Shown here: piece by piece, positions 14,206 through 63,154 of the stretch | How positions within the stretch are numbered: the first letter of the stretch is position 1 | Layout: every line of letters starts with the position of its first letter | Assembly: GCA_963681505.1 (NCBI GenBank) | Contig: OY811980.1 | Span: 746,117-810,116 of the forward strand | Source: Eunapius fragilis | Taxonomy: Eukaryota; Porifera; Demospongiae; Spongillida; Spongillidae | Direction of reading: 5' to 3' | Length of the DNA: 64,000 bases | Position numbers and translations under genes: made by a program | Notes under the pieces: model-generated | The model's input: only the letters and a program-made list of their open reading frames with translations | The model's database searches: none | What the model was told of the DNA's origin: nothing

Positions 14206-17200
14206 ATGGGGCATGGCAGCGACGTGAACCTTGGACATCACGGGGCTGGGGATGACTGCTTCGGCAAAGTGTTCAGATATGTCGGCGGTGGAGCAACGGC
14301 CGGTCAGGGCTAGCCGATCCTATTAGTGCGCTTTAATAAAGAAAAAATTCTTGTTAGGAGCTGCATACGGAACAGTGGAAGGATGTTTTGTAAAGCCAGT
14401 AAAAGGCTCCACCACGCCTATGATTTTCCGAGCGTTACAGGTTATTGTGAGCAGAGCTGTTCTTATTGGTAAGTAATTATACTACTACTCAGACGTGGGG
14501 AGCGTTATTTAAATTGTTGGGGGCGGGGTGTTATTATTTTTTACGATAAGAACTTAACTTCACGTAACTTTGAAGCACCACACCTTTCGTCTCGGGGGGG
14601 ATGGAGCAGGGTTCTATCCCATTAAGTCACCCACAACCATTATGTGTTTTATGTTATATACAAGTCCTAAGCTGTGTTTAATACCAGGCTGCTCTAATTA
14701 AGTGTAAAGTAGCCAATGCAATGAATATGAAGATGACTTGCAGAAGTATGATTTATTGTAAATGGCTAAGCTGCAGACTGAAGTAGGCTGGGGGAGGAGG
14801 GGGATGATGTGTAATTCATGAGAAGTATTACTGTTTTAAATACCCACATACAATGGACTCCATACTGCCTTCATGCTATTTGATGCACAACCCTACCTTC
14901 ATGCTCTTTGATGCACACCCCTACAGGCTACCTTTGCGTAGTCTTGATAAGCACACTGGAGGCTTGGAATTTGAACTGAGTTTGATTAATTTTTGCAAGG
15001 GAATAGGGTGGTGGTTGGAAGCTGATCCAGTTACTTTTAATCCTTGTCGTGTTGGAATCTTGTAGGTCTAACCAGCCTCTGTAGCAACCCGTGTTTGTTT
15101 GGCACACCCTGTTGTACAATGCAGTTTTTGAATCTGAGTTATTTATTAACTTGAATTGAAAGCTGTGTTCCTTCTCTGTTATAATCAGAACCCTGATAGG
15201 CACCCTCATCCCCACGTCCAGATAGACACCCTCATCCCCACGTCCAGATAGGCACCCTCATCCCCACGTCCAGATAGGCACCCTCATCCCCACATCCAGA
15301 TAGGCACCCTCATCCCCACATCCAGATAGGCACCCTCATCCCCACGTCCAGATAGGCACCCTCATCCCCACGTCCAGATAGGCACCCTCATCCCCACGTC
15401 CAGATAGGCACCCTCATCCCCACATCCAGATAGGCACCCTCATCCCCACATCCAGATAGGCACCCTCATCCCCACGTCCAGATTGGCACCCTCATCCCCA
15501 CGTCCAGATAGGCACCCTCATCCCCACATCCAGATAGGCACCCTCATCCCCACGTCCAGATAGGCACCCTCATCCCCACTTCCAGATAGGCACCCTCATC
15601 CCCACGTCCAGATTGGCACCCTCATCCCCACATCCAGATAGGCACCCTCATCCCCACGTCCAGATTGGCACCCTCATCCCCACGTCCAGATAGGCACCCT
15701 CATCCCCACGTCCAGATAGGCACCCTCATCCCCCCGTCCAGATAGGTACCCTCATCCCCACGTCCAGATAGGCACCCTCATCCCCACGTCCAGATAGGCA
15801 CCCTCATCTCCACGTCCAGATAGGCACCCTCATCCCCACGTCCAGATAGGCACCCTCATCCCCCCGTCCAGATAGGTACCCTCATCCCCACGTCCAGATA
15901 GGCACCCTCATCCCCACGTCCAGATAGGCACCCTCATCCCCACATCCAGATAGGCACCCTCATCCCCACGTCCAGATAGGCACCCTCATCCCCACATCCA
16001 GATAGGCACCCTCATCCCCACGTCCAGATAGGCACCCTCATCTCCACGTCCAGATAGGCACCCTCATCCCCACGTCCAGATAGGCACCCTCATCCCCACG
16101 TCCAGATAGGCACCCTCATCCCCACGTCTGGTGTCTAGCATCATGAAGCAAATTAATTAACCTTTTAACATTTTTGCCTGGTTGTTACATATCACACTCA
16201 ATAGAGGCAGCTGACTAGCTCAATAAAGGGCGGGAAGAGGCAGCTGACGAGTTATCTATGTCAAAGGTTTAATTGGCAATTAAAAGCTTCTTTTAACAAC
16301 AGGTCTGGTCTTCTGGTTTTCAGAAGTGGGTCATTGAAAGGTGTACTCTGGTTTGTTGATACTACCTAATTGTAATCTTGGTGACACCCAGCCAAATTAG
16401 TCTCTCACTTTTTTCCATGTGTGGGAGTCATTTGTGGCCAGGCATAGTTTTGTACTTGCTTTTTGAACTTCAAAATCTTTAATATTGCGTACTACTTGGA
16501 CCGATGGGGTTCCCAGGTGGGCCAGGGGGGTTCCATGGACCGATGGGGTTTGCAGGTGGGCCAGGGTGGTTCCATGGACCGATGGGGTTTGCAGGTGGGC
16601 CAGGGTGGTTCCATGGACCAATGGGGTTTGCAGGTGGGCCAGGGTGGTTCCATGGACCGATGGGGTTTGCAGGTGGGCCAGGGTGGTTCCATCCCATCCA
16701 CAGTGGCACCATCAAAGCCACCACACATTACGATGTCCAGACCACCCACCAGAGTGAAATGCCAAGCCACTCAGGTTACGTGCATGACCATACAGCTGCA
16801 GCTGGAAGTAACTAAGGCCGACTTGCGTATCGCTATGACCAAGCTAAATTTAGCTTGGCAAGTGACCTAGATTTTACCTTGCACACCAAAGGATTTTATT
16901 AAGCTGATTTGCACCATGATGTAATATTCAAAATTGTCGTCATGGCTACATGATCTCTTTTTTTGTTGCTAAGCTGTCTCTATGGAAGTGCGTAGGATTT
17001 CAGTTTTTGGTTTTGACGTGCATTTACATGTAGTTAATTGTAGTAGGCTTTTGAGGAGGAACGGCAGAAGTAGACCCAGCCATACATACATGTCCCCTGC
17101 TCGTTTGTGTGGAGGGAATTAGCGCAGAAGATGTGTGCTTGAAAGGTCGAGCGTGTGCGTGGGGACATGCCGTCACATTTGAAATCAGTATATGCAGTCC

Positions 17201-28927: not shown

Positions 28928-28933
28928 GTGGCT
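28928..28933. repeat. Left copy of 6-bp target-site duplication (GTGGCT)
   Basis: It directly abuts the left palindrome end; the partner is at 37448-37453, directly abutting the right end. Confidence 0.7.
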
Positions 28934-29439
28934 GGTCCGTGTAAGAAACCGCCACTCAATATTTCAATTGTTCAATTTATTGGAATTTGCAATTTTGACG
29001 CACTAATTGCCGATTTTTGATGATATTTGTAATTTTCACTACGTGAATAATTGATCTAGCGAGGTTTTTTCAAATTTTCAAAATTTCAATTAAAAATTGA
29101 AAAATTGAAATTTTGAAAAATGCTTCGTGCGGGCAGGTCCGTGGTCCGTGTACTTTTAGAGCACTCCGCGTCCCAATCAGTAAAAATATTTGGAATATGA
29201 TTTTCTATCACGAAATTGATGCAAACATCTCATTACTGGACATTTCGGCCATTTGAAGTTAGTCATTCGGAATATACGTCACCGCGCATATAAATATCTA
29301 AACTCCTAAACTTCAAATGGCCGAAACCTCAAACTCGTTTGAATTTTTACTTCCTTGTACGATTCGGACTAAATTCTATCCCCTCATTCCCAGTTGCCTT
29401 ATTTATAATTTTACTTGGTTTTCGCTTTAAAACTCTAAA

Positions 29440-29705
29440 CTTCTAAACTCCCGATACTCAACGGTTCAAATGTTTAGAAATTTAGGTTTTTAGTTGTAAA
29501 CTCCACGGTTCAAATGTTTAGAAATTTAGTCAACGGTTCAAATGTTTAGAAATTTAGGTTTTTAGTTGTAAACTCAACGGTTCAAATGTTTAGAAATTTA
29601 GGTTTTTATAGTTGTAAACTCAACGGTTCAGATGTTTAGAAGTTTAGGTTTTTAGTTGTAAACTCAACGGTTCAGATGTTTAGAAATTTAGGTTTTTTGT
29701 TGTAA
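29440..29705. repeat. ~44-bp tandem repeat in palindrome left arm
   Basis: Units around CAACGGTTCAAATGTTTAGA plus AATTTAGGTTTTTAGTTGTAAACT are repeated about six times. The mirrored array lies at about 36676-36941 in the right arm. Confidence 0.92.
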
Positions 29706-30151
29706 CTCGCTTATATATCCATCGTCCAAGCCTCGGTTAGTGACTTAGAGAGTTTTCATTACTTTTGGTGCAAAAATCAAATTTGGTCGAGTTCAATCCC
29801 CGAAGATGTTAAATCTGTTTATGTATTTGGTTATCCATATCCTCGTCTGTCCGGTTCCAGGAACCCACGTCGCTGAAGTTAATTGGGCTGACGCTTTGTG
29901 AGAATAATAAAGAAGTACGCAAGCCTGAGCTAAACGGTTACGTGCCAGGTATACGCGGGCTTCAAAGTTAGCGCCAGTGGCATCTTAGCATTTTGTTGGT
30001 GCAGGCGCACACTGATGGCTGCTATGCACATATGCATCCCTGTGTCAGTTTTTCCAGAAAACGTGTGGGTGGGTGTATCTGTGCATGTGTGTACATGTAC
30101 ATGTACAGGTTTGCATTTGCAAATGCAGCCAGCATTATGGTGTGTAATGGT

Positions 30152-30153
<2 letters not shown>

Positions 30154-30223
<70 letters not shown>
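30154..30223. repeat. (TG)n microsatellite in left arm (the only arm-to-arm length difference)
   Basis: A pure TG tract; its mirror (CA, about 36157-36228) differs by one dinucleotide. Confidence 0.9.
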
Positions 30224-30224
<1 letters not shown>

Positions 30225-31845
30225 ACTATGTGTGTGCAATGGGTTCATGTATTTGTGGCTGTATTTGATTGGCTTACCTTTTGGACTGTGGCCACACCCT
30301 CTTACATATAATGCTATCAGCTTGCTTTAAAAAAACTCTTCCTCTACCATTAGTACCTCCCTCTCTGGCCCCTCCTCCTCATGAATGAGGACATCAGTAG
30401 AAGATAGCTGCAGTGTTCCATGATGACCACACCCACCCAGCCCTCAAAAATACTGTGGTTTGAGGAAATCTAATCTGGCCATGGTAGGTATAGCACGTTC
30501 CAATGCTCTCTAAGGCAATTTCATTGGCTTACTGACTAAAATTCAAGCAAATGGATGCTTAATGCAGCTCATCCAGAATGGATGGGTTGTTGGTATCTGA
30601 CACTGTGGAAGCTGGATAGTCAATTAAGTAGATAAAGGGGTGCTGTAGTAACGTATCTGGTTTTGTCGGATGATCTGCCTTAACTGGACGGGTGTCCTCC
30701 ACCCTTTATTTTTTTTAAAGGTTTGCTTTCAAAGTGATCAGTAGTGATGTGTAACAAGCACTTATCCTCTTTTTCAGTTAGAGCCTCAGTCACCTGCTGA
30801 GTGCAGAAATTCTCCTAGAGTGGTCCTCCTCCAGGGATGGCACTGTGCACAGATGGTTTGGTCTGCAACTCCCAGATGGATAAACAACCTTGCTTGTATA
30901 GTACCTGCATTAGACCTTTAGCAGTAGTCAACTAGCTGCCACACACCCCTGCAATTGTTGCACGTGAAAATCTATTCCATTTGATGTATACTATATCTAC
31001 CCTCCAGAGGATTGTTCCAGTTGTAGCCATTACCACTTGTCTTTGACATGCTTTTGGGCTTAGACTACTAACCTAGTTTGTCTATAATCTCATCACTTCT
31101 CGTTCCCATGACCATAAATATCTAAATATCAAACCTAATTTCCTGCACAGCCATGCCAGAGATTATATTAGGGGATTGGAAGCTGATCGTGCACGTTTCG
31201 CTGTACCTATGCACAGAATATTCGAGGTAGTTTTAATATTAATCACACCTCTGAATTTATGGATTTTTGGTGAAAGACCATTGGGATTTGGAGTTGTCTC
31301 TCTTACAAAGTAAGCCAAAAAGTTTACTGTAACTTGATCAACAAATAAATGTAGCTCTATGAATATGATTTGACAATGCAATCTTTTTATGTTAGCCAAA
31401 TTCATATCTGCTATTTCTTTTGCTTCACACTTGTGAAAGGATGCTATTTTTTTTTACTTCACACTAGTGAAAGGATGGTATTTTTTCCCTGGGTAACTGC
31501 TCGTTACCTGTTAAAGCTTTAGTTTCTTTTTTGTGCTTTAAATGTCTTGCATTGTGTGTTGATGAAGGTTTTAACTTTTAAGAGTGATCCTTGCCAATGT
31601 TTTGCTGCAAGATCCTGAAAACATGATTTGGTACACAGGACACAGCTTGAAGTTGTGTTGTGTGGTTACTGTAATGCAGCGTGAAACTGACACCAATATT
31701 TTAGTACGGTCAAAACCCATGCATATGCCAATATACATTTTGGGTCACGTTTATGGTTTGAAATTAATTTTGTTTTCATGCATGGGTGGATCAAACTTTA
31801 GGCTAGGAAGAATTCCACAGTACACAGACCAGCTAAAGTGAAAGC

Positions 31846-32201
31846 CTATGACTGCTTGAAAGGCTTTCTGCTGCACTTGTGGTGATCAGGGCAGATAGTG
31901 CACATGAGATGACAGTGTGTACAACAGAACTCCTCCGCAGGACCATTGCGTCCATCTATACATTCATAAAAATATGCCACTGTTACTTGTAATCTTGGAC
32001 ACAAGCAGCTACCAAGATCGAGGTTCTGAGGGAGACCACTGGCCCCTCCCACTGGGATGTTCATTTTTTGTTCACAGGTAGGACACTTGAACACTTGTTG
32101 GGAACCACTTTTCTCTATCACAGAATGTAGTCATACTGACAGAAGGAGTGCAGACATACACGTAGTAGAATTCTTGGATGACTGCGATAACAACGTGGTA
32201 T
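31846..32201 (-). pseudogene. TRIM-like RING/B-box fragment, left arm
   Basis: Minus-strand sequence has RING-like SHPRILLRVCLHSFCQYDYI, then, after a frame change, VFKCPTCEQKMNIPVGGASG and a B-box-like EEFCCTHCHLMCTICPDHHK, then a stop. In TRIM E3 ubiquitin ligases the RING begins with a CxxC that is not preserved here, and no coiled coil or C-terminal domain follows. It is probably a captured and decayed TRIM exon. The identical mirror copy is in the right arm. Confidence 0.55.
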
Positions 32202-32672
32202 ACCTATCCTGCCCAGCCCCTCTCCCCACTCATTTACCTGCTATGGAATTCATTTGTCTCCATGGCTAAGCATATGGAATTTCTGCTGAACTATAAAATA
32301 TCGTGCTCAGACACCATTACATCTCACATGGGTCTGAGTACAAAACATGATAGTTATAATTACTGGTACAGCACAAAGCAGTGCAAAAAAAAAAAAAAAA
32401 AAACTGGTTGGGGGGGGGAGGGATTTGTGTATGGTATCAATACATGCATGGCTCCTTGCATCCAAATACCCAGGGCAGGACACTGGGACCCCACAGACTT
32501 GATGTATACATCATTTGCAATTATGCATAGTTATATGTGTCGCACTTGATTCTCTTTTTTCTTCTTGTTCTCAAAAACAGACCTGAATAGCAGGATATAT
32601 GTGTGTATGTTCAGAGTAATCATTAAAGACCAATGAGCATAGCATTATGTGAGCAGGTGTACTGCATGTACA

Positions 32673-33706
32673 GCTGGGAGGGAGGAGAGTGTGGAATGGT
32701 AGGGAAAACACACAACACAGAGCTGTAGATAATCTATTCACTGGGTTGGATCTGTAGTGTGATCTTTTGCTGGTTATCCAAGCATTCACAGTTTGTTTTC
32801 GGCCATTTTCAGCCTCTGTTCCAGAATGGTCTATGTCATGGGTACAATCACAAGATGATGAAATGGAAAATAATCTCACACCTATTAAACCTTTGGTCTT
32901 ACTATGAGGCATGTTAAATTAAAATGTTCTTTTGATATTTACATGGCGACCTGATGTCGACATAATATCTTCCTAGGTAGTATGACATCTTTCTTTCTTC
33001 TTCATTAAGAATCACATGGTGGAGAGGATCTGGGTTGTATTTCACCGTGCAACTATCCAATGAAAAGCAGGCCTGATTGATATGGATAAAAAAGGAAGCT
33101 TGGACAATGCTGTACACCGCTTCATCCTGGTTTGAAATAAATGTTGGAGCAATGATGACAGCATAATAGTTCTTGGAATCAGCTCCACGTCTCACATCTG
33201 ATGTGGGAATTCCTGAATGAGTAGCTGTACATGTTTCTGCCTCCATTTTTTGAATAGCAAGAAAGCTTTTAAGAACAGGTGGATATTGTAACATAAATGT
33301 CACAATTTACATTTCCTATTTGAAACTTGCTGTCATATTTAACAACATTCAAGTCTGGTTCCATCCATTAGATATACATGTTCTGTAAACAGGCTTTGCA
33401 TAAGTGCAGTACACGACAAATGCCATCACTTGACTGATTTTGGTGTATGTACTGATTTCAATTTAATGTATATGGAATGTTGCACGAGATCACGAGATTC
33501 AAGTTTGACCCTTGTGGATAGATTTATATACACACAAGTAAATAAAAACATTCTCTAACAAGATCTGTTGTTGGTATATAGGATTGACTAATGGTGGTGT
33601 AAAAAGCACGGAAGAAATTTTACTGGAAAATTGAAATAGGCCTATATTTAGCACACATGGGCTATTTCAAAATTTCTGTCACACTTGTTTCTGTGCTTTT
33701 TACTGT
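32673..33706. other. Unique loop of the giant palindrome
   Basis: A 1.03-kb single-copy spacer between the arms. It holds a 129-codon minus-strand frame (32914-33303) and a 113-codon one (32571-32912, overlapping the arm), neither with a domain I recognise. Near its right end (about 33585-33705) is a short hairpin whose GGTGGTGTAAAAAGCACGGA and CCTATATTTAGCACAC resemble the core of the hairpin element at 37931-38250. Confidence 0.6.
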
Positions 33707-34177
33707 TGTACATGCAGTACACCTGCTCACATAATGCTATGCTCATTGGTCTTTAATGATTACTCTGAACATACACACATATATCCTGCTATTCAGGTCT
33801 GTTTTTGAGAACAAGAAGAAAAAAGAGAATCAAGTGCGACACATATAACTATGCATAATTGCAAATGATGTATACATCAAGTCTGTGGGGTCCCAGTGTC
33901 CTGCCCTGGGTATTTGGATGCAAGGAGCCATGCATGTATTGATACCATACACAAATCCCTCCCCCCCCCAACCAGTTTTTTTTTTTTTTTTTTTGCACTG
34001 CTTTGTGCTGTACCAGTAATTATAACTATCATGTTTTGTACTCAGACCCATGTGAGATGTAATGGTGTCTGAGCACGATATTTTATAGTTCAGCAGAAAT
34101 TCCATATGCTTAGCCATGGAGACAAATGAATTCCATAGCAGGTAAATGAGTGGGGAGAGGGGCTGGGCAGGATAGGT

Positions 34178-34533
34178 ATACCACGTTGTTATCGCAGTCA
34201 TCCAAGAATTCTACTACGTGTATGTCTGCACTCCTTCTGTCAGTATGACTACATTCTGTGATAGAGAAAAGTGGTTCCCAACAAGTGTTCAAGTGTCCTA
34301 CCTGTGAACAAAAAATGAACATCCCAGTGGGAGGGGCCAGTGGTCTCCCTCAGAACCTCGATCTTGGTAGCTGCTTGTGTCCAAGATTACAAGTAACAGT
34401 GGCATATTTTTATGAATGTATAGATGGACGCAATGGTCCTGCGGAGGAGTTCTGTTGTACACACTGTCATCTCATGTGCACTATCTGCCCTGATCACCAC
34501 AAGTGCAGCAGAAAGCCTTTCAAGCAGTCATAG
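34178..34533 (+). pseudogene. TRIM-like RING/B-box fragment, right arm
   Basis: The exact mirror of 31846-32201, with the same frame change and stop. It is listed separately because it lies on the other strand. Confidence 0.55.
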
Positions 34534-36154
34534 GCTTTCACTTTAGCTGGTCTGTGTACTGTGGAATTCTTCCTAGCCTAAAGTTTGATCCACCCATGCA
34601 TGAAAACAAAATTAATTTCAAACCATAAACGTGACCCAAAATGTATATTGGCATATGCATGGGTTTTGACCGTACTAAAATATTGGTGTCAGTTTCACGC
34701 TGCATTACAGTAACCACACAACACAACTTCAAGCTGTGTCCTGTGTACCAAATCATGTTTTCAGGATCTTGCAGCAAAACATTGGCAAGGATCACTCTTA
34801 AAAGTTAAAACCTTCATCAACACACAATGCAAGACATTTAAAGCACAAAAAAGAAACTAAAGCTTTAACAGGTAACGAGCAGTTACCCAGGGAAAAAATA
34901 CCATCCTTTCACTAGTGTGAAGTAAAAAAAAATAGCATCCTTTCACAAGTGTGAAGCAAAAGAAATAGCAGATATGAATTTGGCTAACATAAAAAGATTG
35001 CATTGTCAAATCATATTCATAGAGCTACATTTATTTGTTGATCAAGTTACAGTAAACTTTTTGGCTTACTTTGTAAGAGAGACAACTCCAAATCCCAATG
35101 GTCTTTCACCAAAAATCCATAAATTCAGAGGTGTGATTAATATTAAAACTACCTCGAATATTCTGTGCATAGGTACAGCGAAACGTGCACGATCAGCTTC
35201 CAATCCCCTAATATAATCTCTGGCATGGCTGTGCAGGAAATTAGGTTTGATATTTAGATATTTATGGTCATGGGAACGAGAAGTGATGAGATTATAGACA
35301 AACTAGGTTAGTAGTCTAAGCCCAAAAGCATGTCAAAGACAAGTGGTAATGGCTACAACTGGAACAATCCTCTGGAGGGTAGATATAGTATACATCAAAT
35401 GGAATAGATTTTCACGTGCAACAATTGCAGGGGTGTGTGGCAGCTAGTTGACTACTGCTAAAGGTCTAATGCAGGTACTATACAAGCAAGGTTGTTTATC
35501 CATCTGGGAGTTGCAGACCAAACCATCTGTGCACAGTGCCATCCCTGGAGGAGGACCACTCTAGGAGAATTTCTGCACTCAGCAGGTGACTGAGGCTCTA
35601 ACTGAAAAAGAGGATAAGTGCTTGTTACACATCACTACTGATCACTTTGAAAGCAAACCTTTAAAAAAAATAAAGGGTGGAGGACACCCGTCCAGTTAAG
35701 GCAGATCATCCGACAAAACCAGATACGTTACTACAGCACCCCTTTATCTACTTAATTGACTATCCAGCTTCCACAGTGTCAGATACCAACAACCCATCCA
35801 TTCTGGATGAGCTGCATTAAGCATCCATTTGCTTGAATTTTAGTCAGTAAGCCAATGAAATTGCCTTAGAGAGCATTGGAACGTGCTATACCTACCATGG
35901 CCAGATTAGATTTCCTCAAACCACAGTATTTTTGAGGGCTGGGTGGGTGTGGTCATCATGGAACACTGCAGCTATCTTCTACTGATGTCCTCATTCATGA
36001 GGAGGAGGGGCCAGAGAGGGAGGTACTAATGGTAGAGGAAGAGTTTTTTTAAAGCAAGCTGATAGCATTATATGTAAGAGGGTGTGGCCACAGTCCAAAA
36101 GGTAAGCCAATCAAATACAGCCACAAATACATGAACCCATTGCACACACATAGT

Positions 36155-36229
<75 letters not shown>

Positions 36230-37447
36230 ACCATTACACACCATAATGCTGGCTGCATTTGCAAATGCAAACCTGTACATGTACATGTACACACATGCAC
36301 AGATACACCCACCCACACGTTTTCTGGAAAAACTGACACAGGGATGCATATGTGCATAGCAGCCATCAGTGTGCGCCTGCACCAACAAAATGCTAAGATG
36401 CCACTGGCGCTAACTTTGAAGCCCGCGTATACCTGGCACGTAACCGTTTAGCTCAGGCTTGCGTACTTCTTTATTATTCTCACAAAGCGTCAGCCCAATT
36501 AACTTCAGCGACGTGGGTTCCTGGAACCGGACAGACGAGGATATGGATAACCAAATACATAAACAGATTTAACATCTTCGGGGATTGAACTCGACCAAAT
36601 TTGATTTTTGCACCAAAAGTAATGAAAACTCTCTAAGTCACTAACCGAGGCTTGGACGATGGATATATAAGCGAGTTACAACAAAAAACCTAAATTTCTA
36701 AACATCTGAACCGTTGAGTTTACAACTAAAAACCTAAACTTCTAAACATCTGAACCGTTGAGTTTACAACTATAAAAACCTAAATTTCTAAACATTTGAA
36801 CCGTTGAGTTTACAACTAAAAACCTAAATTTCTAAACATTTGAACCGTTGACTAAATTTCTAAACATTTGAACCGTGGAGTTTACAACTAAAAACCTAAA
36901 TTTCTAAACATTTGAACCGTTGAGTATCGGGAGTTTAGAAGTTTAGAGTTTTAAAGCGAAAACCAAGTAAAATTATAAATAAGGCAACTGGGAATGAGGG
37001 GATAGAATTTAGTCCGAATCGTACAAGGAAGTAAAAATTCAAACGAGTTTGAGGTTTCGGCCATTTGAAGTTTAGGAGTTTAGATATTTATATGCGCGGT
37101 GACGTATATTCCGAATGACTAACTTCAAATGGCCGAAATGTCCAGTAATGAGATGTTTGCATCAATTTCGTGATAGAAAATCATATTCCAAATATTTTTA
37201 CTGATTGGGACGCGGAGTGCTCTAAAAGTACACGGACCACGGACCTGCCCGCACGAAGCATTTTTCAAAATTTCAATTTTTCAATTTTTAATTGAAATTT
37301 TGAAAATTTGAAAAAACCTCGCTAGATCAATTATTCACGTAGTGAAAATTACAAATATCATCAAAAATCGGCAATTAGTGCGTCAAAATTGCAAATTCCA
37401 ATAAATTGAACAATTGAAATATTGAGTGGCGGTTTCTTACACGGACC

Positions 37448-37930
37448 GTGGCTGTCCTATCGGAAGTTTCGCTAGAAAACTTCCATATCCGACTATGAAA
37501 TCATTATAAACACGCGATCCGTTTATAACGAGACTCCTGACGATCGGATCGTTTAGCTAGTTGTAATCAAACGAGATGACGAAATGGAGTAGCTTCGTTG
37601 TATGTTTTTATGTCTCAATAAAACCGCGCGGTTGTAGAGAACTCCTGCCCGTCCTCGTACCCAGTCCCGGAATAATCCTTCTCCTTCTTGACCACACATA
37701 ACCATAACTCATGACAGGAACACATTTAAAGTTCACCAATAGCTTTAGAATTGACTGGAAGAGTGCCTACTGTGATCAAATAGTCGATGGTATATTTTGG
37801 TAATTGTATCGTTAGATTTCGGCCGTACTAAACGTTACTCGTATCATTACGGCCGAACCTTAGAATTGTCGATACCAAACCAGAAAACTACAGCAAATAA
37901 TTTACAATCAACTATACGGTAGTGTAAGAC
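37448..37930. other. Unassigned spacer right of the palindrome
   Basis: It begins with the right copy of GTGGCT. I see no gene or long repeat. A short inverted pair (CGGAAGTTTCGCTAG/AAAACTTCC) lies near 37460-37485. Confidence 0.5.
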
Positions 37931-38250
37931 GTATAATTAGATATGAGAAAAAATAAGTAACTAAAAACGTTTTCTATGAGAAAGTTGGTGAGATATAGGA
38001 TTTGAAGGCAATGGTGGTGCAAAAAGCAAGGAAACAAGAGTCTGTAATAGTAAGGGAAATTTAAATGTCATAGTCCTATATTTAGCACACCAACATAGTA
38101 TAGGCTACAAACGGGCTAAATATGACTATGACATTTTCCCTTACTATTACAGACTCTTGTTTCCTTGCTTTATGCACCACCATTGCCTTCAAATCCTATA
38201 TCTCACAAACTTTCTCATAGAGAATGTTTTTAGTTACTTGTCTAATTATA
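37931..38250. mobile_element. ~320-bp hairpin (foldback/MITE-like) element
   Basis: The two halves are near-perfect reverse complements from TATAATTAGA (37931) to TCTAATTATA (38250), with one 13-bp insertion near the left end. The core is GGTGGTGCAAAAAGCAAGGA. TA at each extremity could be a Tc1/mariner-type target duplication, but the family is unproven. Confidence 0.75.
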
Positions 38251-39066
38251 ACCAGTCTCGCAGCCAAGTCATAATGAGTGCATTTCTTTAACAACTACAG
38301 TCTCGCACATATGTGTGCTGGTCATGAGTTTCCAGTTCATTTCTTCATTAACTGTACACATGGTGCCTTAGCCGCTGATCTTTAGTTGGGTCCCCACATT
38401 GTTTGATTGCACGACTTTCTGCTCACTTGTATGACTTGCGAAAAGATATGTAACAAGGAGAGAAGGAAGGGGGGGGGGGGGGGGGGGGGAAAGGGGGGGA
38501 GAAAGGAAGGAAGGATGGAGATATCTAGTGAACAAACGACCAGCTGATGTTTTGGTTGGTAGTTGGGATGGTAACCTGCAGCACTTGATATCTCTGTTAC
38601 ATCTCTGCTTAAATCAAACACTATCATTTGAAGCGAGCATAACAGAACCAGTTGAGCTACTGCAGATCTGAGCTCATCACGTTTGTTTACATCACACCCT
38701 AAATGTCAACATTTAGGGTGGGAGTGTGTTCCACTGGTGGTCAAGTCTCTCTGGAGCTTGGGGCAAACATGTTCTTAGCTCCTTCTGTCTTTGGCTATAC
38801 TCAGCCGGGGGGGGGGGGGGGGGGGGAGAGGACATTTATGGCCTTTACATACATATATAAATATAAATATATATCTGGGTTTCTATATGTAATATAGACA
38901 ATGGGATGGACTTTCTCACATTTGGAATATTTTCAGGCATTGCTCGTGTATCATCATGTGATATACAAATCTAAATAAACATACAACATGTACCTACAAA
39001 CAGGGGGAGATAAATGCTATTGTGAACGATTCTTTTTTCTTCGTTTACAATTAGCTGAAGTTCCTC
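38251..39066. other. Spacer with G homopolymer runs; 3' flank of reductase copy A
   Basis: There are G runs at about 38470-38488 and 38808-38826. From about 38933 the sequence matches the flank of the second reductase copy (about 49815 on), which marks the duplication edge. No gene is supported. Confidence 0.6.
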
Positions 39067-41883
<2,817 letters not shown>

Positions 41884-43837: not shown

Positions 43838-44357
43838 TTCACCACCTAGGCCTGTTGTTTGAACAACACAAAGGTTTTCTCTTGCGATTTGTCATACATA
43901 AATTTTTCCGTTGAGAAAAACTAAATTCTTCCATTGAGAAAAACTAGCTATAAGACCGCATCTCATTATAACTGTTGAACCTGAAGCTACATGTACCTTT
44001 AAATAAAATGGCCTTTAAATGCTATCCAGGTACACTTTTCAGGTTGTTAAAACTTTCTCTGTCTCGCTCATTTCCTCCCTTCTTTTGTTGGACATCCATT
44101 CAAACTTTGCGACCAGATTCATACCACTCAAATGAGGAAATGAGCGAGACAGAAAAAGTTTTTTTTTTAACAACCTGAAAAGTGTACATGGATAACATTT
44201 AAAGGCCATTTTATTTAAAGGTACATGTAGCTTCAGCTGGTTCAACAGTTATATAATGAGATGCGGTCTTATAGCTCAACGGAAGAATTTATGTATGACA
44301 AACTGCATGAGAAAACCTTTGGGTTGTTCAAACAACAGGCCTAGGTGGTGAAGTGTA
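43838..44357. mobile_element. ~520-bp hairpin element
   Basis: Left TTCACCACCTAGGCCTGTTG mirrors the right end CAGGCCTAGGTGGTGAA. The arms include AGACCGCATCTCATTATA and GGAAATGAGCGAGACAG, with a ~50-bp loop. The two short mirrored frames are spurious. Confidence 0.82.
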
Positions 44358-44647: not shown

Positions 44648-47600
44648 TCACACAGTCGCACTTCGGCAGTAACCAAGGAGACATGCACCCCTGTTCATGT
44701 CCATCTGGAGTTGGTTCCACGCCTCCTTGTGATAAAGCAAAAGTTGTTCCACCAGAGGTGCAAACACTGCTGAACTGGTGATGGTGTCTAGGTGAAGCTG
44801 TGAAGGAGGATGAGACACAATTACATCACACACTTGTACCACCATAACACTCACTTTTAGGAACAACCCCATGTATGCCTCTACCAGCTCAAAGTTGGTT
44901 CCTGTCTTGATCTGGTCCAACAGAAACCTCAGAAACCATTCCAAATGTTCAGTAGTACCGCCCCCATCAGGGGAAAGTCCCCTGATCTCCCCTTCAATGG
45001 CCGCTGGGCCCATCCCCTTAAGAATCTCCATCACGGGACTGACTGTCGCCATGGGAGCAGATGGCAACCTTCAGTAACTATAAACTGCAAGCACAAACTC
45101 ACAGCTCTTCCCGGCAGAGGCACACTCCTTCAATGACCTAACAAAGTCAGTCGCTGGTATCAGCTTGCCAAGGTTAATGATCTTTGATGCAGAGGACTAT
45201 AAATTGGACAGGAATCATTAAAAAATTAATGAGGGGCAGGGCATAGGTGATGGGGCTCATGGGTGAGGATGAAACCAATGGATGAGGGAGTATGTTAGGA
45301 TGTATGATGTGCAGGTAAGGATGTGTGATGTGCAGGTGTGTGTGATATGTATGTGAGGATGTGTGATGCACAGGTGTGTGTGATATGTATGTGAGGATGT
45401 GTGATGCACAGGTGTGTGTGATGTGTATGTGAGGATGTGTGATGTGCAGGTGTGTGTGATATGTATGTGAGGATGTGTGATGCACAGGTGTGTGTGATGT
45501 GTACGTGAGGATGTGTGATGCACAGGTGTGTGTGATATGTATGTGAGGATGTGTGATGCACAGGTGTGTGTGATGTGTACGTGAGGATGTGTGATGCACA
45601 GGTGTGTGATGTGTGTGAGATGTGTGATGCACAGGCGTGTGATGTGTATGTGAGGATGTGTGATGCACAGGTGTGTGTGATGTGTATGTGAGGATGTGTG
45701 ATGCACAGGTGTGTGTGATGTGTATGTGAGGATGTGTGATGTGCAGGTGTGTGTGATATGTATGTGAGGATGTGTGATGCACAGGTGTGTGTGATGTGTA
45801 TGTGAGGATGTGTGATGCACAGGTGTGTGTGATATGTATGTGAGGATGTGTGATGCACAGGTGTGTGTGATGTGTACGTGAGGATGTGTGATGCACAGGT
45901 GTGTGATGTGTGTGAGATGTGTGATGCACAGGCGTGTGATGTGTATGTGAGGATGTGTGATGCACAGGTGTGTGTGATGTGTATGTGAGGATGTGTGATG
46001 CACAGGTGTGTGTGATGTGTATGTGAGGATGTGTGATGCACAGGTGTGTGTGATGTGTATGTGAGGATGTGTGATGCACAGGTGTGTGTGATGTGTATGT
46101 GAGGATGTGTGATGCACAGGTGGATAACCTCATTTAATGGGATTTCACTCTCAGAAAGAGGAGCAAACTTAGGCTCCAGGCCAGGCAGTGTGGGCAAGAA
46201 GAAGGGTGCTTCTTTAGGCTGCTTTGGTGGTTCCACAGGCTTGTTACGTTGCTACAGGAGAGAGGTTAGAAGACTGACCACACCTCCTTACACTGTATCT
46301 TACCTTAATTGTGTCCAGAAGCTCCAGAGTGTGCCAGCGAGATTTGGGAAGAGCAGAGAGGGTTAAAAGCCCCTTGGAGATTGGCAACACTGAGCCTTGC
46401 TCCAATGAGTGCCCATCATGGTCCTTGATCTCATGTTGTTGAGGACTCTCATCTAAAACTAAATAAGTTATAGTAAACATAGCCTTGCCAGCCCATACCT
46501 ACCAAGTTCCTACCCACATTACATTAGGTACCAGGTCCCATTCCCATACCTGCCCAGTCCCTTCCCTACAGCTAATGGTTTCCACCCTCGTACTAGCTCC
46601 ACTCACCAGCCCCTCCCTTCCGACCATCATTTTCCTCCTCCCCATCCACCACAACAGTAGCGGGAAGTTCAACCAGGTGTGGCACATAGCCGGCAGGAAG
46701 GGGGCGGAGACTGAGGTGTGAGTAGACGGACCTGTTGCACCTGTTAGATGTACCCATAGTGAAGCCAATCAAACCACACCCACAGGCAGCAGATCTAACC
46801 AGAGGTATATTCCAAGGTCATCCACATGTGAGGTGGCCAAGAAATCACCTGTTGGTGAGAAGGCAATGCTGGTGGCTGGAGACTCCTCCAAGAAATAGTC
46901 AATGAGCCTATTAACAGAACACAGGCAAGCACCCACCCACACACACAAACACACAATAATTATCAACCATTTGCACAATTGATTATTGCACACCTCCCAC
47001 TGGGCAGGTCCCAAGTACGAATGGTACAGTCCATTGATGATGTCATCAGCCATCTAGCATCGGGACTAAAAGCCTTTTTAAATTTTTTAAAAAGGGTGGG
47101 AGGTGGGAGGGGCTAAGCACAGATGCAAATAATCATGTCTGGCAAGCTCACCATATCCATAATCCTGTTTCCATGACCACTGAACTTTCTGACAATTCTT
47201 TTGGTGTCCGTATCTATTACCAGTACACCAAAGTTGTCACAGGATACTGCTAGCATAGAGCTGTGTGCAATGTAATTTGTTTGTGATAGAGGAAGGGAGA
47301 CAAAGGGAGGGGAAGGGTGAGAGGGAAGAGGGAGAGGGAGTGAGGGGAGGGAGGGAAGGGTGAGGGGAGAAGTGAGGAGAAGAATGAGAGAGAGTGAGGG
47401 ACTTCCATATTGAGGGCATCCACAGCCACTCCTCTAACAGACCCGCCATGAGCTGACCCCAAAACACACCAGATCACAGCATAACGTAACCACATGTTAA
47501 TACACTCAACTCTTCTCTGCCTTCACTACTCCCCCTCACTTCAAGGTCCCACCACTCCCCCTTACCTACAGGTTCCCAGCCACTCCCACTTATCTACAGG

Positions 47601-48710: not shown

Positions 48711-49097
48711 TTGTACTTTATTTTATACTGGAATAATTTATGATAGTTATTAAAAATATTTACCACATAATTATATAACAGCTTCAACCTTAATAACTTT
48801 AAAGTCTTTGAACCTAGTAACTTGAAATCAGTACTGTTCCACCGCGTATCCATATATTGTGTGACTTATTAGTAGTTATTAAATCTATTATCGTAACCAC
48901 AATCTTGAATAACATTGTTAATAGAGAGCTTTGAATATTTTGACTTATGAGGTTTTGATACAGTTATTTAACCGCTTAGAATCTAATTGGATTATTTGTG
49001 ACTACTGCAAAAATCAAAATCAAGCAGTTAATTAATTTCAATCCTGAGTTATAGGGATTTTAAAGCGTTGCGTTCTTTCGCAAACACCCTGTATATA
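48711..49097. other. AT-rich spacer where WDR36 N-terminal exons would be expected
   Basis: AT-rich unique sequence with no coding similarity that I can detect. It separates the last recognisable WDR36 exon from the hairpin at 49098. Confidence 0.5.
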
Positions 49098-49752
49098 GCA
49101 TAAAAATCAAATCGATATATCTACCGATATATTAACGCTATCGGGTTCCTATTTTTAACACAACATACCACACCATTACTATATGTGAAAATCCATTTTG
49201 GTGTCTTACACATGCGGGGTACCGACGTTACATGGTCCGATACTCCATAGGGTTCAAAACGGCCACATCTTCAGGTAATCGGTTCAAATTCGGTACGTAC
49301 ATAGAAGGGTCCTGTCGCTATTGACTTCTTCTGTTAGTTAATTTTTACTTCATCGGTTACGGAGATATAGCTGTGCAAAGTGCGTGCATTTTTTCCCGCT
49401 CGATTCACGCCATACATTGAATGTCTAATTCACTGGCGCGAATCAAGCGGGAAACCGTGCATGCACTTTGCACAGCTATATCTCCGTAACGGATAAAGTA
49501 AAAATTAACGAACAGAACAAATCAAAAGCGACAGGACCTTTCTACGTACGTACCGAATCTGAACCGATTTGGACGCTCCTATCGCGTTTTGAACCATACG
49601 GGGTATCGGACCTTGTAACGTCGGTACCCCGCATGAGTAAGACACCAGAATGGATTCTAACATATAGTAATGAAGTGGTATGTTGTGTTTAAAATATGAA
49701 CCCGATAGTGTATACTTAGGAAGATATATCGATTTGCTTTTTATATATATAA
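49098..49752. mobile_element. ~650-bp hairpin element
   Basis: The arms are reverse complements with moderate divergence: left AAATCGATATATC, GGGGTACCGACGTTAC and CAGCTATATCTCCGTAAC-type segments reappear inverted on the right, around a centre near 49415. No target duplication is clear. Confidence 0.75.
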
Positions 49753-49951
49753 ATCCACAAGACCCATTTTCCCATTGAACGTCCCATACAGTAAATCATT
49801 TAAACTTTCTCATTTTCAGGCATTGCTTTTGCGTCATCATGTGATATACAAATCTAAATAAACGTACAACATGTACCTACAAACAGGGGGAGCTAAATGC
49901 TATTGTGAATGATTCCTTTTTTTTTTCTTTTACAATTAGCTGAAGTTCCTC

Positions 49952-51962
49952 TCACACTGTGACCAGAACTATCACTATCAGTATGAATGTTATTGTGATG
50001 CACAAGAACAGAGACAGACCAATCCATCGGAGCACAACATCCTGTCAAGGTGGGGGGGGGGGGGGGGGGGGTAAGCACAAACATAAGTGACCAATGATAC
50101 ATTGCAAGAGGCACACACACACACACATACACACACACACACACACTTACCTTGGACTTTGGCTGTTTTATGGACGGAGTTTGGGAAGGAGTAGGCGGGG
50201 CAGGTGTGGGCGTGACAGGCATGGGTGGTTTATCATTATCAGCGAGCTTCTGTTCTGTCTTCGTTTCGCCAATGTAGTATTCAAGGATTGGTTTTATCAG
50301 CGCCGGTCCTAACTTCAGACCCTCTGAAAAGAGGATGAGGGTGGAGTGTGGGGGAGAGGGGAGGGGAAATGGGGGAGGTGGAGGGGAGAGGGAAGTGGGG
50401 GAGGTGGGGGGGTCAGTACATCATCTAGTTATTGTATGGAGCTGTCTGACTTACTCTCCCCTCCCGTGACAATGGCTATTCCTGTGAACAGGCCAAAGAG
50501 GAGCACAAACAGAAGGAACAGCAGTGCTGCGTAGGTCACATAGAAGCCAAGGGTTCTGTAGGACCCAGGGCTGCTGCTGTATCCATTGGTCTCGAAAAGG
50601 GCCAGACCAATACCACAGTTGACCACTACAACATGTGAGGGGCATGGGATTATTGCTCAGGTTGTGAGTGTGTGTGTGTGTGTGTGTATGTGTGTGTGTG
50701 GGGGGGCTTAAGTTAGTTCTTACGTGCTAGTATCTCAACTGCAAGTCCTATCAGGCTTCCATGGAGGATGTTGAAGATCCAACGTCTGGAAATGTGAAAG
50801 GAGTGCTATGTTTAACCCCTTGAGTTCTGCTGGCCCTTCACACACATCGCGCATATACACACATACATGCATCATTGCTTCCTTCAGTACCCGCACACGT
50901 AAATCTTTGTAACGTGCACACTAACCTTGGACTTGTGGGCAAGCATCTGAATGCTGAGATGATGGGCTGTAATAGGGAGACATATTACCCATTGCAAGTA
51001 ACTACCAAGGACAGCCCCCAATTATGGAGTAGATGTGTTGCTATGGATACAGAGCACTCACATTGATGATATGGAGAAACATGACGAGAATTCCAATCAC
51101 GAAGTGAGCAAGTCCACCATTCTGAAAGTGAATACCAACACATTTAATTGGATCAATAATAAGACATCACATCTCTCTCCCTCCCTCTCTCTTCCCCCTC
51201 CTCTCCCTCTCTCTTCTCCCTCCTCCCTCCCTCCCTCTCTCTCTGTCTCTCTCTCTCTCTCTCTCCTTACTGAGCTGAGGGAAATTATCCCATTGTTTCC
51301 AGCGTTGGCAATGAAGACAATAAAAAACCCAGCTGCTCCAACAAACATTGAAGCCAACATCAGTATTCTGTGGATCTAAAAACAAGCACAGAACCCACAT
51401 CACACAAGTCCCCAGACCATGCACCAAAGTCCCCAGCCCTAAAACTGACCGTGAACCACTTGGGGGGCATAGGAGGTGGTCCCAAGGCTGGCTTCATCCA
51501 AGCAGCAAAGAATATCCCAGTTACTGCCAAGAGGGGCCAAGCGATGAGCATAAGGATACCATGAACCTTCGTGAGGATGGTCTTTGGGATAGCTGTTTTG
51601 ACTGCACTTGTACCAGTGGCCATGGCAACAATCACAGCTTGGGAAGTGGCGACAGGATCCGTACTGTGTTGGGACGGTGCCAGTGTGGCTCCAGAACCCA
51701 CTTCAGCAGTAACAACAAAAGTAAATAAACAACCTGTAACCATAACAACATGGTTTACCTGGAGCATTTCCCACTGCTGCAAGCAGTAAGTAATATGGAG
51801 AACTAAGGTCACTGTCTTGGGTAGTGTCACCAGTTTTAATGAGTCTGCTGAAGCTGAAAAATGGCATGGGCACTCGATGAAGAAGACATGGCATGCAACA
51901 GGAGGTACATACCTGCAGGTTATCCGTCCACCAACGACAGAAGTCAAGCGTGGGCAGACATC
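49952..51962 (-). CDS. Ferric-chelate reductase 1-like copy 2, exons 4-13
   Basis: Each exon has exactly the length of its copy A counterpart: 51913-51962, 51759-51853, 51450-51700, 51271-51375, 51062-51121, 50926-50966, 50724-50785, 50455-50625, 50151-50323, 49952-50041 (1098 nt). Splice sites, haem histidines, proline-rich linker and last helix are all conserved, and most differences from copy A are single substitutions. The matching exons 1-3 are not next to exon 4: after the (CA)n tract of intron 3 comes 10.2 kb of LINE-rich DNA, and exons 3 and 2 resume at 62245. If that intron splices, the gene is intact over this part; otherwise this is a 5'-truncated copy. Confidence 0.85.
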
Positions 51963-51970
51963 CTAAGAGG

Positions 51971-51971
<1 letters not shown>

Positions 51972-52028
<57 letters not shown>
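51972..52028. repeat. (CA)n microsatellite at edge of the inserted DNA in copy 2 intron 3
   Basis: A CA tract directly after exon 4. Copy A similarity stops here; the sequence that follows (CATGATAATAAATGTACCTG) is instead shared with 63155-63175. Confidence 0.9.
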
Positions 52029-52030
<2 letters not shown>

Positions 52031-52499
52031 ACAACATGATAATAAATGTACCTGCAATGAGTAATTATATATTATTTAATATTATTATAGATACAAGAGA
52101 ATACACGAATAGGAATAAATGCACTTACAGGATTATTATTATTATTAATTATTATTATTTTTTTTTATTATTATTAGATATTAGATACATGAAATACATG
52201 AAACAAGACAATACACGAATGGAATAAATGCTCATACAGAATTATTATTAATATTGTCCACAAAAAACACCTATAGATGTTCTAAACTACATAGCTTCTA
52301 CCTAGAATGGATCTAGCCACTGAACGCACCAGGGACATATTAAGGCGGCTGTAGATGGTGTGGAGGGCCCAAGACTTTGAAGTTCCTTGGTGCATCCCGA
52401 GTGCAGAATTTTTTTTTTTAACCAGTCAAATATTTTCATAACTCACTATTGAACTAAATCATACAAAAAACTCTTCATCATCCCCATTCATTGTTATTT

Positions 52500-57998: not shown

Positions 57999-59047
57999 GG
58001 GTCATTCCAAAAACGTTTTTACCACCCTAGTGTCAAATCTGCATTATATTACCCATATTTATTATCCACTTAGAAATATATACTTTCACAATACAATTGT
58101 ATACTCTATCACTCTTTGTTTACCAGATACACTGCCTTTGAATAATTAATCATTTTTTGCTTTGAATGACTGCTGCTTCCCCCTTACAATTGGCATGCTC
58201 ATTTTCTGTGCACAGAAGGAAGGGTTTTATGGGAACACACCCTTCAGCATGCGAATGCACATTGTTGGTCATAAGGGGGAGTGGCAATACATCCATTTAG
58301 CATAAGGTTGTAACATAGCCAAAAATTATGACACCATTCTTTGTTTGTTAGATAGCTGCCGACAGTTAACGGCTTTCTGTGAATTCAACTTTTTGGGATA
58401 CTGATCACTTGTTCTGGGATTTTGATTCAAAAGCCAGGCTGCCATATTTAATCTCCCTTTTGCATTCACATCAATCACATTCATCAAAACAAAACAACCA
58501 CGAAGTAATTGTTCAATTACTTTGTGGTTGATTTGTTTTGATAAAAGTTTCAATAATGTGATTGATATGAATGCCAAAGGGAGATTAAATATGGCAGCCT
58601 GGCTTTTGAATCAAAATCCCAGACCATGTGATCAGTATCCCAAAAAGTTGAATTCACAGAAAGCCGTTAACTGTCGGCAGCTATCTAACAAACAAAGAAT
58701 GGTGTCATAATTTTTAAATTATTTTTGGCTATGTTACAACCTTATGCTAAATGGATGTATTGCCACTCCCCCTTATGACCAACAATGTGCATTCGCATGC
58801 TGAAGGGTGTGTTCCCATAAAACCCTTCCTTCTGTGCACAGAAGATGAGCATGCCAATTGTAAGGGGGAAGCAGTAGTCATTCAAAGCAAAAAATGATTA
58901 ATTATTCAAGGCAGTGTATCTGGTAAACAAAGAGTGATAGAGTATACAATTGTATTGTAAAAGTACATATTTCTAAGTGGATAATAAATATGGGTAATAT
59001 AATGCAGATTTGACACTAGGGTGGTAAAAACGTTTTTGGAATGACCC
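57999..59047. mobile_element. 1.05-kb hairpin element inserted in the LINE RT region
   Basis: Perfect terminal inverted repeats GGGTCATTCCAAAAACGTTT at each end continue as near-identical arms to a centre near 58520, with almost no loop. The flanks (CTGAAAAGGA left, AGTGAGTCTC right) are both LINE coding sequence, so it inserted after the LINE. No target duplication is evident. Its mirrored frames (58326-58577 and 58522-58710) encode the same spurious peptide. Confidence 0.88.
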
Positions 59048-62070: not shown

Positions 62071-62244
62071 TTATGATAATTGTTATTATTATTATTATTA
62101 TTAAAAAATTAAAATAAAAAAAATGTATTATGTATTCTATACTTATTATTATTAAAAAAATTAAATTAAAAAAATAAATAAATTAAAAAATAAAAGCATA
62201 AATGTCTTGAAATAATTTATTTTTAAAAGTGCTCCCGCTCTTAC
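62071..62244. other. AT-rich (ATT)n/(AAAT)n junction at LINE 5' end
   Basis: Simple (TTA)n and A-rich sequence lies between the LINE 5' side and the point (about 62195) where reductase intron 3 similarity resumes. Confidence 0.6.
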
Positions 62245-63060
62245 CTGCTTTGTGGAATCCCGGGCACTGCTGTATCCTGTATTGTATGCATCCACTACGC
62301 CCACGCCTCCAGTAGCCGTACTGTCGACACCGCACATGATTACGTCGCTGGAAGCCTTATGAATCAACATGGTATTTCATAAGCCTCCCTCTGTTGTTTC
62401 GCTGCTTACCATACGACCAGTAGGCGAAAACCCAACGGCTATATACCCAGCTGCACTCCCCTCCATCCAGAAGTCGAGGTAGTTAGAGTCGATAGTGCTT
62501 GTGTTAACACCAAGGAAGAAGGTGCAGGCCGTCCGTTGGCAACCGGACGGATTCGTGACCGTATATCTGAACGTCTGTGTGGCCTATAGGACGCAAAACC
62601 GGCTTTCACTCATTTTGCCACCTGAATGCAGCAAAGGAAACCGGTTAGTTATCTAACTCACTGACACAGCCAGTATGCCACCACCGGTCGGACATGTCAC
62701 GGCGTGTATCGGAGTGGCCACGGAAACATTCACAGCTTGGGAAGTGGCGACAGGATTTGAACTGTGTTGGGACGGTGCCAGTGTGGCTCCAGAACCCACT
62801 TCAGCAGTAACAACAAAAGTAAATAAACAACCTGTAACCATAACAACATGGTTTACCTGGAGCATTTCCCACTGCTGCAAGCAGTAAGTAATATGGAGAA
62901 CTAAGGTCACTGTCTTGGGCAGTGTCACCAGTTTTAATGAGTCTGCTGAAGCTGAAAAGTGGCATGGGCACTCGATGAAGAAGATATGGCATGCAACAGG
63001 AGGTGCATACCTGCAGGTTATCCGTCCACCAACGACAGAAGTCAAGCGTGGGCAGACATC
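62245..63060 (-). CDS. Ferric-chelate reductase 1-like copy 2: rearranged exon block 4-5-6'/1'-2-3
   Basis: Minus-strand exons: 63011-63060 (= exon 4), 62857-62951 (= exon 5), 62662-62798 (start of exon 6 fused to the end of exon 1), 62410-62583 (= exon 2), 62245-62355 (= exon 3). Total 567 nt, all splice sites present, frame kept across the fusion: exon 6 TSQAVNVSVAT runs into exon 1 IHAVTCPTGGGILAVS. The signal peptide part of exon 1 is lost. Exons 3 to 4 would join over the 10.3-kb intron to 49952-51962. The product would have two DOMON units before cytochrome b561, provided more upstream exons lie beyond the window. The alternative is a non-expressed duplication remnant. Confidence 0.78.
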
Positions 63061-63069
63061 CTAAGAGGA

Positions 63070-63108
63070 CACACACACACACATGCATGCACACACACAC
63101 GCACACAC

Positions 63109-63153
<45 letters not shown>
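63070..63153. repeat. (CA)n microsatellite beside rearranged block
   Basis: A CA tract with GCATGC and GCAC interruptions, in the same position relative to exon 4 as 51972-52028, followed by the same CATGATAATAAATGTACCTG sequence. Confidence 0.9.

Positions 63154-63154
<1 letters not shown>

What the first reader, a model, noticed from the sequence alone, without database searches (positions are those of the whole stretch)
28928..37453. 8.5-kb near-perfect palindrome flanked by a 6-bp direct repeat: a giant foldback transposon
The 3.74-kb arms differ, as far as I can see, by only one dinucleotide in a microsatellite, enclose a 1.03-kb loop, and are bounded on both sides by GTGGCT. An exact flanking duplication at both arm tips is what a transposition event leaves. 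I know of no named family with arms this long and these ends. It is either very recent or kept identical by gene conversion.
Basis: partly seen in the sequence, partly recalled or inferred. Interest (0 to 1): 0.88.

Follow-up and report, generated by a model that had tools for sequence, protein, structure and literature searches.

The report
Giant foldback transposon with mirrored ends
An 8.5-kb stretch of what looks like a sponge chromosome is a jumping DNA element made almost entirely of two mirror-image halves, and the remains of other elements trapped symmetrically at its ends suggest that one half is sometimes copied onto the other.

Summary
The palindrome is real: arms 28934-32672 and 33707-37447 differ only by one TG unit in a microsatellite, around a 1034-bp loop, with GTGGCT on both sides. 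It belongs to a large family in this 219-Mb genome: 31 of 46 tip pairs tabulated carry an exact 6-bp target duplication (shuffled mean 0.8). No Pfam domain was found in the one B and one A element searched, so they look non-autonomous.

The new point lies at the ends. An inner palindrome (type B, 29143-37238) is capped on both sides by the same 209 bp: 202 bp of a type A element plus 7 bp of another tip. The exact 16-mer across that junction occurs at three places: both ends here and C11:8300399, an ordinary one-sided nested insertion with its own duplication. A one-sided nest was apparently mirrored onto the other arm.

Arms of one copy are sisters in the tree for 9 of 9 A copies and 7 of 8 B copies (several weakly supported), so arms are rewritten from each other. 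Two B copies share an arm-specific haplotype, so not at every jump. Fold-back fill-in is the likeliest mechanism, not proven.

The parts
28928..28933 (.). left copy of 6-bp target-site duplication GTGGCT
   Evidence: 31 of 46 tabulated tip pairs of the family have an exact 6-bp duplication
37448..37453 (.). right copy of 6-bp target-site duplication GTGGCT
28934..32672 (+). left arm, 3739 bp
   Evidence: 99.95% to the right arm, 0 mismatches, 2 gap positions
33707..37447 (-). right arm, 3741 bp
32673..33706 (.). single-copy loop, 1034 bp; the same loop (1034-1035 bp, 99.4-100%) lies in five other full-length copies
28934..29135 (+). left cap: first 202 bp of a type A element (tip GGTCCGTGTAAGAAACCGCCACTC)
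   Evidence: 202/202 identical to L029
37246..37447 (-). right cap: mirror copy of the same 202 bp
29136..29142 (+). 7-bp remnant GGTCCGT, read as the start of a type C tip; the junction with the cap equals the type C insertion junction at C11:8300399
37239..37245 (-). mirror copy of the 7-bp remnant
29143..37238 (.). inner type B palindrome (tip GGTCCGTGTACTTTTAGAGCACTC), homologous to five other full-length B copies
29458..29705 (+). minisatellite in the left arm (44-bp unit and longer periods)
36676..36923 (-). same minisatellite in the right arm
30154..30223 (+). TG run, 35 units; with its partner the only difference between the arms
36156..36227 (-). CA run, 36 units
31853..32179 (-). fragment of a TRIM-type (RING/B-box/filamin) gene, 81.5% identical over 346 columns to part of an open 476-codon frame on contig C1
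34200..34526 (+). mirror copy of the TRIM-type fragment
33526..33703 (.). end of the loop, matching a dispersed short repeat whose hits often come as inverted pairs (best hits 83-92% over 120-200 bp)

Best explanation
This is a copy of a non-autonomous foldback-type DNA transposon family of a sponge-like animal. Its ends (GGTCCGTGTA...) are cut and pasted by a transposase made elsewhere, leaving a 6-bp target duplication (the duplication is shown; the transposase is inferred). Its two arms are from time to time rewritten from each other. The likeliest route is fold-back copying: a broken or single-stranded end pairs with the other arm and DNA synthesis copies that arm outwards, past the old tip, into whatever lies next to it. 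In the window copy this turned a one-sided nest (A end, start of a C tip, B palindrome) into a symmetric element with A ends on both sides, which then jumped to its present place. Shown: family, duplications, shared nest junction, mirror symmetry, concerted arms. Inferred: the copying chemistry, B having landed in a C tip, and mirroring before the jump.
For: 1) 87 exact tips of one pattern, 0 of its reversed control; 31 of 46 inverted tip pairs with an exact 6-bp duplication against a shuffled mean of 0.8, maximum 5 in 1000. 2) Six full-length B palindromes with within-copy mismatches 0/3530, 0/3521, 1/3289, 5/3507, 8/3561 and 9/3514. 3) Arms of one copy are sisters in 9 of 9 A copies (6 with starred support) and 7 of 8 B copies (4 starred); 0 of 10000 random pairings reach either. 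4) The exact 16-mer across the cap junction is found at 3 places: both window ends and C11:8300399, where it is a C insertion with duplication CGGGCA on both sides. In the window the two sides of B read GTCCGT and ACGGAC, mirror images, not a direct repeat. 5) The arm/loop boundary moves: the centres of C9:8101501 and C9:8261472 (recent duplicates of each other) hold an inverted copy of loop bases 1-285, and C23:1762290 has the whole loop doubled in inverse orientation. 6) A variant (alignment column 191) is on both arms of C5a and on one arm of C9a, as arm-to-arm transfer predicts. 7) Fill-in synthesis primed from a foldback is reported in yeast (PMC10622511, abstract read).
Against: C9a and C9b share an arm-specific haplotype (two substitutions and a 2-bp deletion on the same side of the loop), so unequal arms were passed on: rewriting is not obligatory. 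C9a's arms are not sisters; C10w and C9b pair only in weakly supported forks. Among A copies C12, C16 and C18 pair with support below the starred level, and C12 and C18 are as close to each other (5/1439) as their own arms are (7/1486 and 15/1618). Raw within-copy counts for the fixed 1663-bp slices are as high as 48/1650 (C17) and 64/1639 (C3; its slice runs past the inverted repeat; C17 not looked into). The junction is unique only as an exact 16-mer: C20 has an A tip and a C tip 199 bp apart, not read, so C elements may have landed near A position 200 more than once; a looser search did not complete. Fold-back copying, conversion and inverted crossover are not separated. No transposase and no half-mirrored intermediate were found. 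15 of the 46 pairs, and one type C pair not entered among them, have no 6-bp duplication. The 7-bp remnant also fits the start of a B or D tip.
Confidence: 0.7

Rival explanations
1. The mirrored cap came from an inverted crossover between two oppositely oriented copies of the one-sided nest, pairing through the self-complementary B palindrome. Arm likeness is kept by ordinary gene conversion in place, as in sex-chromosome palindromes.
For: Galileo authors propose recombination and conversion among long inverted repeats to extend them (PMC3573991, passages). Several B copies sit close together on C9 and C5. C5a, C9b and others lack duplications, as expected after exchange.
Against: It needs two nearly identical nests in opposite orientation; one one-sided copy of the exact junction was found in this assembly, though a similar nest at C20 was not read. 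Crossover alone does not make arms of one copy sisters in 9 of 9 A copies; conversion has to be added.
Confidence: 0.22
2. The palindrome is an assembly or library artefact.
For: Near-perfect inverted repeats are classic artefacts (general knowledge). Two other tip pairs (C7:3172858-3201498, C1:9042784-9085025) have 2 kb of mirrored host flank at 99.8 and 100%, as far as I fetched, and might be artefacts.
Against: Six full-length copies with their own flanks, private arm variants and a 1-kb single-copy loop. Exact target duplication at both ends here. Different duplications across the family.
Confidence: 0.02
3. A derivative of a Polinton/Maverick-type element, which also makes 6-bp duplications and has long inverted ends.
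For: 6 bp is given for Polinton in PMC10045372 (passage). Some tip pairs lie 20-42 kb apart.
Against: Tips start GGTCCG, not AG (the AG rule is recalled). Three 3.5-kb pieces of one 24-kb member hold integrase, Ulp1, PHD and zinc-knuckle matches and frames that I take from recall for Helitron-like; I read these as nested elements. No Pfam match in the A and B elements searched.
Confidence: 0.04

Closest known systems
Galileo (P superfamily, Drosophila)
   Same: long inverted ends, subfamilies, copies without transposase, recruitment of inner sequence into the ends, chimeric copies (PMC3573991, passages)
   Different: 7-bp duplication there, 6 here; longest ends 1,260 bp there, 3.5-4.05 kb here; no mirrored nested cap in the passages read
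Tetris (foldback, Drosophila virilis)
   Same: foldback form, tandem repeats in the ends, no transposase found, ends shared with another element (PMC4079207, passages)
   Different: ends up to 1,735 bp and 8-10-bp duplications there
Mutator-like elements with tandem inverted ends (plants)
   Same: an outer and an inner set of ends on both sides, gene fragments carried (PMC3310237, passages)
   Different: there the way to symmetric doubling was left open; here an identifiable one-sided nest junction points to mirroring; ends of different element types here
Fold-back inverted duplications in yeast
   Same: inverted repeats near a break prime fill-in synthesis (PMC10622511, abstract)
   Different: chromosome rearrangements, not mobile elements

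Membership tests
Foldback-type transposons (structural class) | long inverted repeats making up much of the element, with a middle domain | tested here: met
   arms 3.5-4.05 kb of 8.0-9.0 kb in eight B copies, 1.5-1.7 kb of 6.2-6.5 kb in two A copies
Foldback-type transposons (structural class) | dispersed copies with target duplications | tested here: met
   31 of 46 tip pairs
Foldback-type transposons (structural class) | tandem repeats inside the inverted ends | tested here: met
   44-bp minisatellite in both window arms; tip-proximal subrepeats of about 162 bp in type C
Galileo / P superfamily | 7-bp duplication (value from PMC3573991, passages) | tested here: not met
   0 of 46 pairs at 7 bp, 31 at 6 bp
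Galileo / P superfamily | P-type transposase | tested here: inconclusive
   no Pfam match in six-frame reads of one B arm plus loop and most of one A arm plus loop; an autonomous partner was not found
Mutator superfamily | duplication of 4-10 bp and MULE transposase | tested here: inconclusive
   6 bp lies inside the range given for IS256/MuDR in PMC10045372 (passage); no transposase found
Polinton/Maverick | 6-bp duplication | tested here: met
Polinton/Maverick | 5'-AG termini (recalled) | tested here: not met
   tips GGTCCGTG
Polinton/Maverick | DNA polymerase and packaging/capsid genes (recalled) | not tested
   PF03175 search unanswered eight times
Dada | insertion into multicopy small RNA genes (PMC3706591, title and start of abstract in a listing) | tested here: not met
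   no Rfam match at gathering scores and no tRNA in the window; other insertion sites not scanned

The most novel reading that the evidence does not exclude
Foldback transposons of this family renew themselves by mirror copying: one arm serves as template for the other through a hairpin, so a copy altered on one side can be reborn as a perfect palindrome. The copying can run past the old ends, so the element can swap its ends for those of a neighbouring element and gain a new transposase specificity in one step.
Probability: 0.45. Interest if true: 0.78.

Novelty: new variant of a known kind. Interest (0 to 1): 0.62.

Why it matters
How foldback elements get and keep long, nearly identical arms, and how elements with doubled ends become symmetric, is left open in the passages read. 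Here a one-sided nested insertion and what looks like its mirrored descendant survive in one genome, giving a before-and-after pair. It also gives a family of young, very long palindromes in an animal chromosome set, useful for studying how genomes tolerate and repair palindromes.

Tried and rejected
Coding content: ORFs of arms, loop, and A and C elements gave no Pfam match above a curated cut-off, and six-frame reads of one B and one A element none at E 0.1. The weak cytochrome b561 hit (E 0.0039, below cut-off) and lysozyme hits (E 0.35) are taken as chance. The TRIM resemblance of an arm ORF had no Pfam support by itself; it rests on 81.5% DNA identity to an open C1 gene with RING, B-box and filamin matches.

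Autonomous partner: long members were read in whole or part. C7:5220951 is a chimera with about 7.7 kb of unrelated DNA. C9:3671881 is a C element with a D element nested in it. C9:569372 gave low-complexity and repeat frames (right end not fetched). Three pieces of C4:2692491 gave integrase, Ulp1, PHD and zinc-knuckle matches, read as nested elements. None shows a transposase for this family.

Empty site: the joined flanks found no full-length match. For another copy (C9:8117631) a paralogous stretch with a single GACTAC looks like its empty site.

Idea that arms are rewritten at every jump: rejected by the shared arm haplotype of C9a and C9b.

Full report
1. The observation. A self-comparison gives one inverted repeat of 3739/3741 bp at 28934-32672 and 33707-37447, 99.95% identical with no mismatch and two gap positions. 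The only difference is a TG run of 35 versus 36 units; everything before and after that run is identical. The loop is 1034 bp. GTGGCT stands directly outside both tips.

2. It is a family. The window lies at G000:C10:746117-810116 in a genome of 218,937,333 bases in 24 contigs. Searches with tip, arm and loop found many relatives (only 40 candidates were scored in each, so counts are lower bounds). The pattern GGTCCGTGTAN9CACTC occurs 87 times, its reversed control 0 times. I paired inward-facing tips by eye into 33 pairs, which use 65 of these 87 tips plus one mutated tip; 22 tips were left out (unpaired, or inner to another pair). 24 of the 33 carry an exact 6-bp direct repeat. With 4 type C and 9 type D pairs added (tips), 31 of 46 have it; the longest match in the other 15 is 0 (eight pairs), 1 (four), 2, 4 and 8. 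Shuffled partners give a mean of 0.8 and a maximum of 5 in 1000 shuffles. One more type C pair that I read, C9:3671881-3691256, has none and was not entered, which makes 31 of 47. The pairs are not all independent: C9:8101501 and C9:8261472 are a recent inverted duplicate (1 mismatch, 26 gap positions in 8975 columns). I did not check all C and D pairs in the listings, and the listing was itself cut.

3. Anatomy. Of 22 type A pairs, 16 are 6.1-7.1 kb long and the rest 8-29 kb; two read in full have arms of 1.5-1.7 kb (L029, L030). Of 10 type B pairs besides the window, 9 are 8-10.3 kb, with arms of 3.5-4.05 kb in those measured. Four type C are 2.8-8.7 kb, with tip subrepeats. Type D tips mostly read GGTCCGTGTACTTTTYCAC. 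Six-frame reads of the window's B arm plus loop and of most of one A arm plus loop, with X at stops, gave no Pfam match at E 0.1. The B arms carry a piece of a TRIM-type gene whose open relative lies on contig C1 (RING, B-box and filamin matches). Among the 120 listed of 706 homologues of that gene, those with an organism name are from Ephydatia muelleri at 55-59% identity, so the host is probably a sponge.

4. The mirrored cap. Window 28934-29135 equals the first 202 bp of type A, 202 of 202. It is followed by GGTCCGT and then the B tip. The reverse complement stands at the other end. At C11:8300205 an A element is interrupted at exactly position 202 by a 4250-bp type C element whose two sides both read CGGGCA, the 6-bp duplication; its first 210 bp equal the window's. 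The exact 16-mer across that junction occurs three times in the genome: both window ends and C11:8300399. So the window cap seems to carry the scar of that nest, with B sitting 7 bp inside the C tip. If B had simply been inserted there, its two sides would repeat GTCCGT directly. They read GTCCGT and ACGGAC, mirror images. The left side was therefore copied onto the right side, or the reverse. That this came before the jump is inferred from the position of GTGGCT outside both caps. A caution: C20 has an A tip and a C tip 199 bp apart, and the C element at C9:3671881 is flanked by sequence resembling the A cap in reverse, so C elements may favour this part of A. Neither matches the 16-mer; a looser pattern search did not complete.

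5. Arms evolve together. In a maximum-likelihood tree of 18 arms from 9 A copies the two arms of a copy are sisters in 9 of 9, against a mean of 0.5 in random pairings; 6 of the 9 pairs have starred support, C12, C16 and C18 less (1299 columns). The 9 are 9 of the 22 A pairs: those whose arms I fetched, the chimeric C7:5220951 left out. Raw within-copy counts over fixed 1663-bp slices run from 5/1643 to 64/1639, the latter in C3 whose slice passes the end of the inverted repeat; the least distance between copies is 5/1439 for C12 and C18 and 20-70 for the others. For 8 B copies (a duplicate left out) it is 7 of 8; four pairs have starred support, C5a 86/87, C10w and C9b sit in weakly supported forks, and C9a fails. 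C9c and C4a differ from the majority of the other young copies at 16 and 13 sites on both arms alike, while their own arms differ at 6 and 7 counted sites. The centre moves too: two older copies, duplicates of each other, have loop bases 1-285 turned into arm, and C23:1762290 has the entire loop in inverse duplicate.

6. Against a simple version. C9a and C9b share two substitutions and a 2-bp deletion on the same arm only. Their parent thus seems to have had unequal arms and to have transposed without levelling them. Arm copying is occasional.

7. How it may work. Inverted repeats near a break can fold back and prime synthesis; in yeast this is reported with polymerase delta (PMC10622511, abstract). 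Applied here, a 3' end lying in the B arm pairs with the other arm and is extended outwards through the 7-bp remnant and the A cap. Inverted crossover between two copies is the main rival. Galileo authors propose recombination and conversion for the growth of its ends (PMC3573991, passages). Two loci here have host flanks mirrored over the 2 kb fetched, which may be larger products of the same process or assembly errors.

8. Comparison. Galileo ends reach 1,260 bp with 7-bp duplications and Tetris ends 1,735 bp with 8-10-bp duplications (passages). The present arms are more than twice as long, with 6 bp. Plant Mutator-like elements with doubled ends are known, and how both ends become doubled was left open (PMC3310237, passages). 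My paper searches showed in their listings, which are cut, no sponge foldback family and no mirrored nest; that library lacks most subscription journals. I file it as a new variant of the foldback class with superfamily unknown.

Noticed in passing
window 38929-41831, 49812-52037, 62192-63209: Segmental repeats of about 91-97% identity, some 10.9 kb and 21 kb apart.
   Followed up: no
window 57999-59047; also 49092-49751, 37955-38239, 43946-44276: Sequences that are their own reverse complement at 83-94% without a spacer, the first 1.05 kb long; they may be other palindromic elements.
   Followed up: no
window 15195-16128 and 45301-46122: Long minisatellites: 35.9 copies of 26 bp and 22 copies of 38 bp.
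   Followed up: no
window 33526-33703: The end of the loop matches a dispersed short repeat with dozens of genome hits, often as inverted pairs.
   Followed up: no
window about 37458-37667: The right flank is a dispersed repeat (77-84% in 38 other places listed), so the element landed at the edge of another repeat.
   Followed up: partly
G000 C7:3172858-3201498 and C1:9042784-9085025: Tip pairs whose host flanks are mirrored over the 2 kb fetched at 99.8% and 100%: large inverted duplications or assembly errors.
   Followed up: partly
G000 C9:5497662, 7588582, 8101501, 2444188, C23:1762290: Elements with a 6-bp duplication inserted in or next to tips of relatives; in all, 11 of 46 pairs have a tip-like 7-mer within 20 bp outside a tip, which suggests a target preference or mutual nesting.
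   Followed up: partly
G000 C20:5394420-5398354 and C9:3671881: Further type C tips in or beside type A sequence near A position 190-202, a possible insertion hot spot.
   Followed up: no
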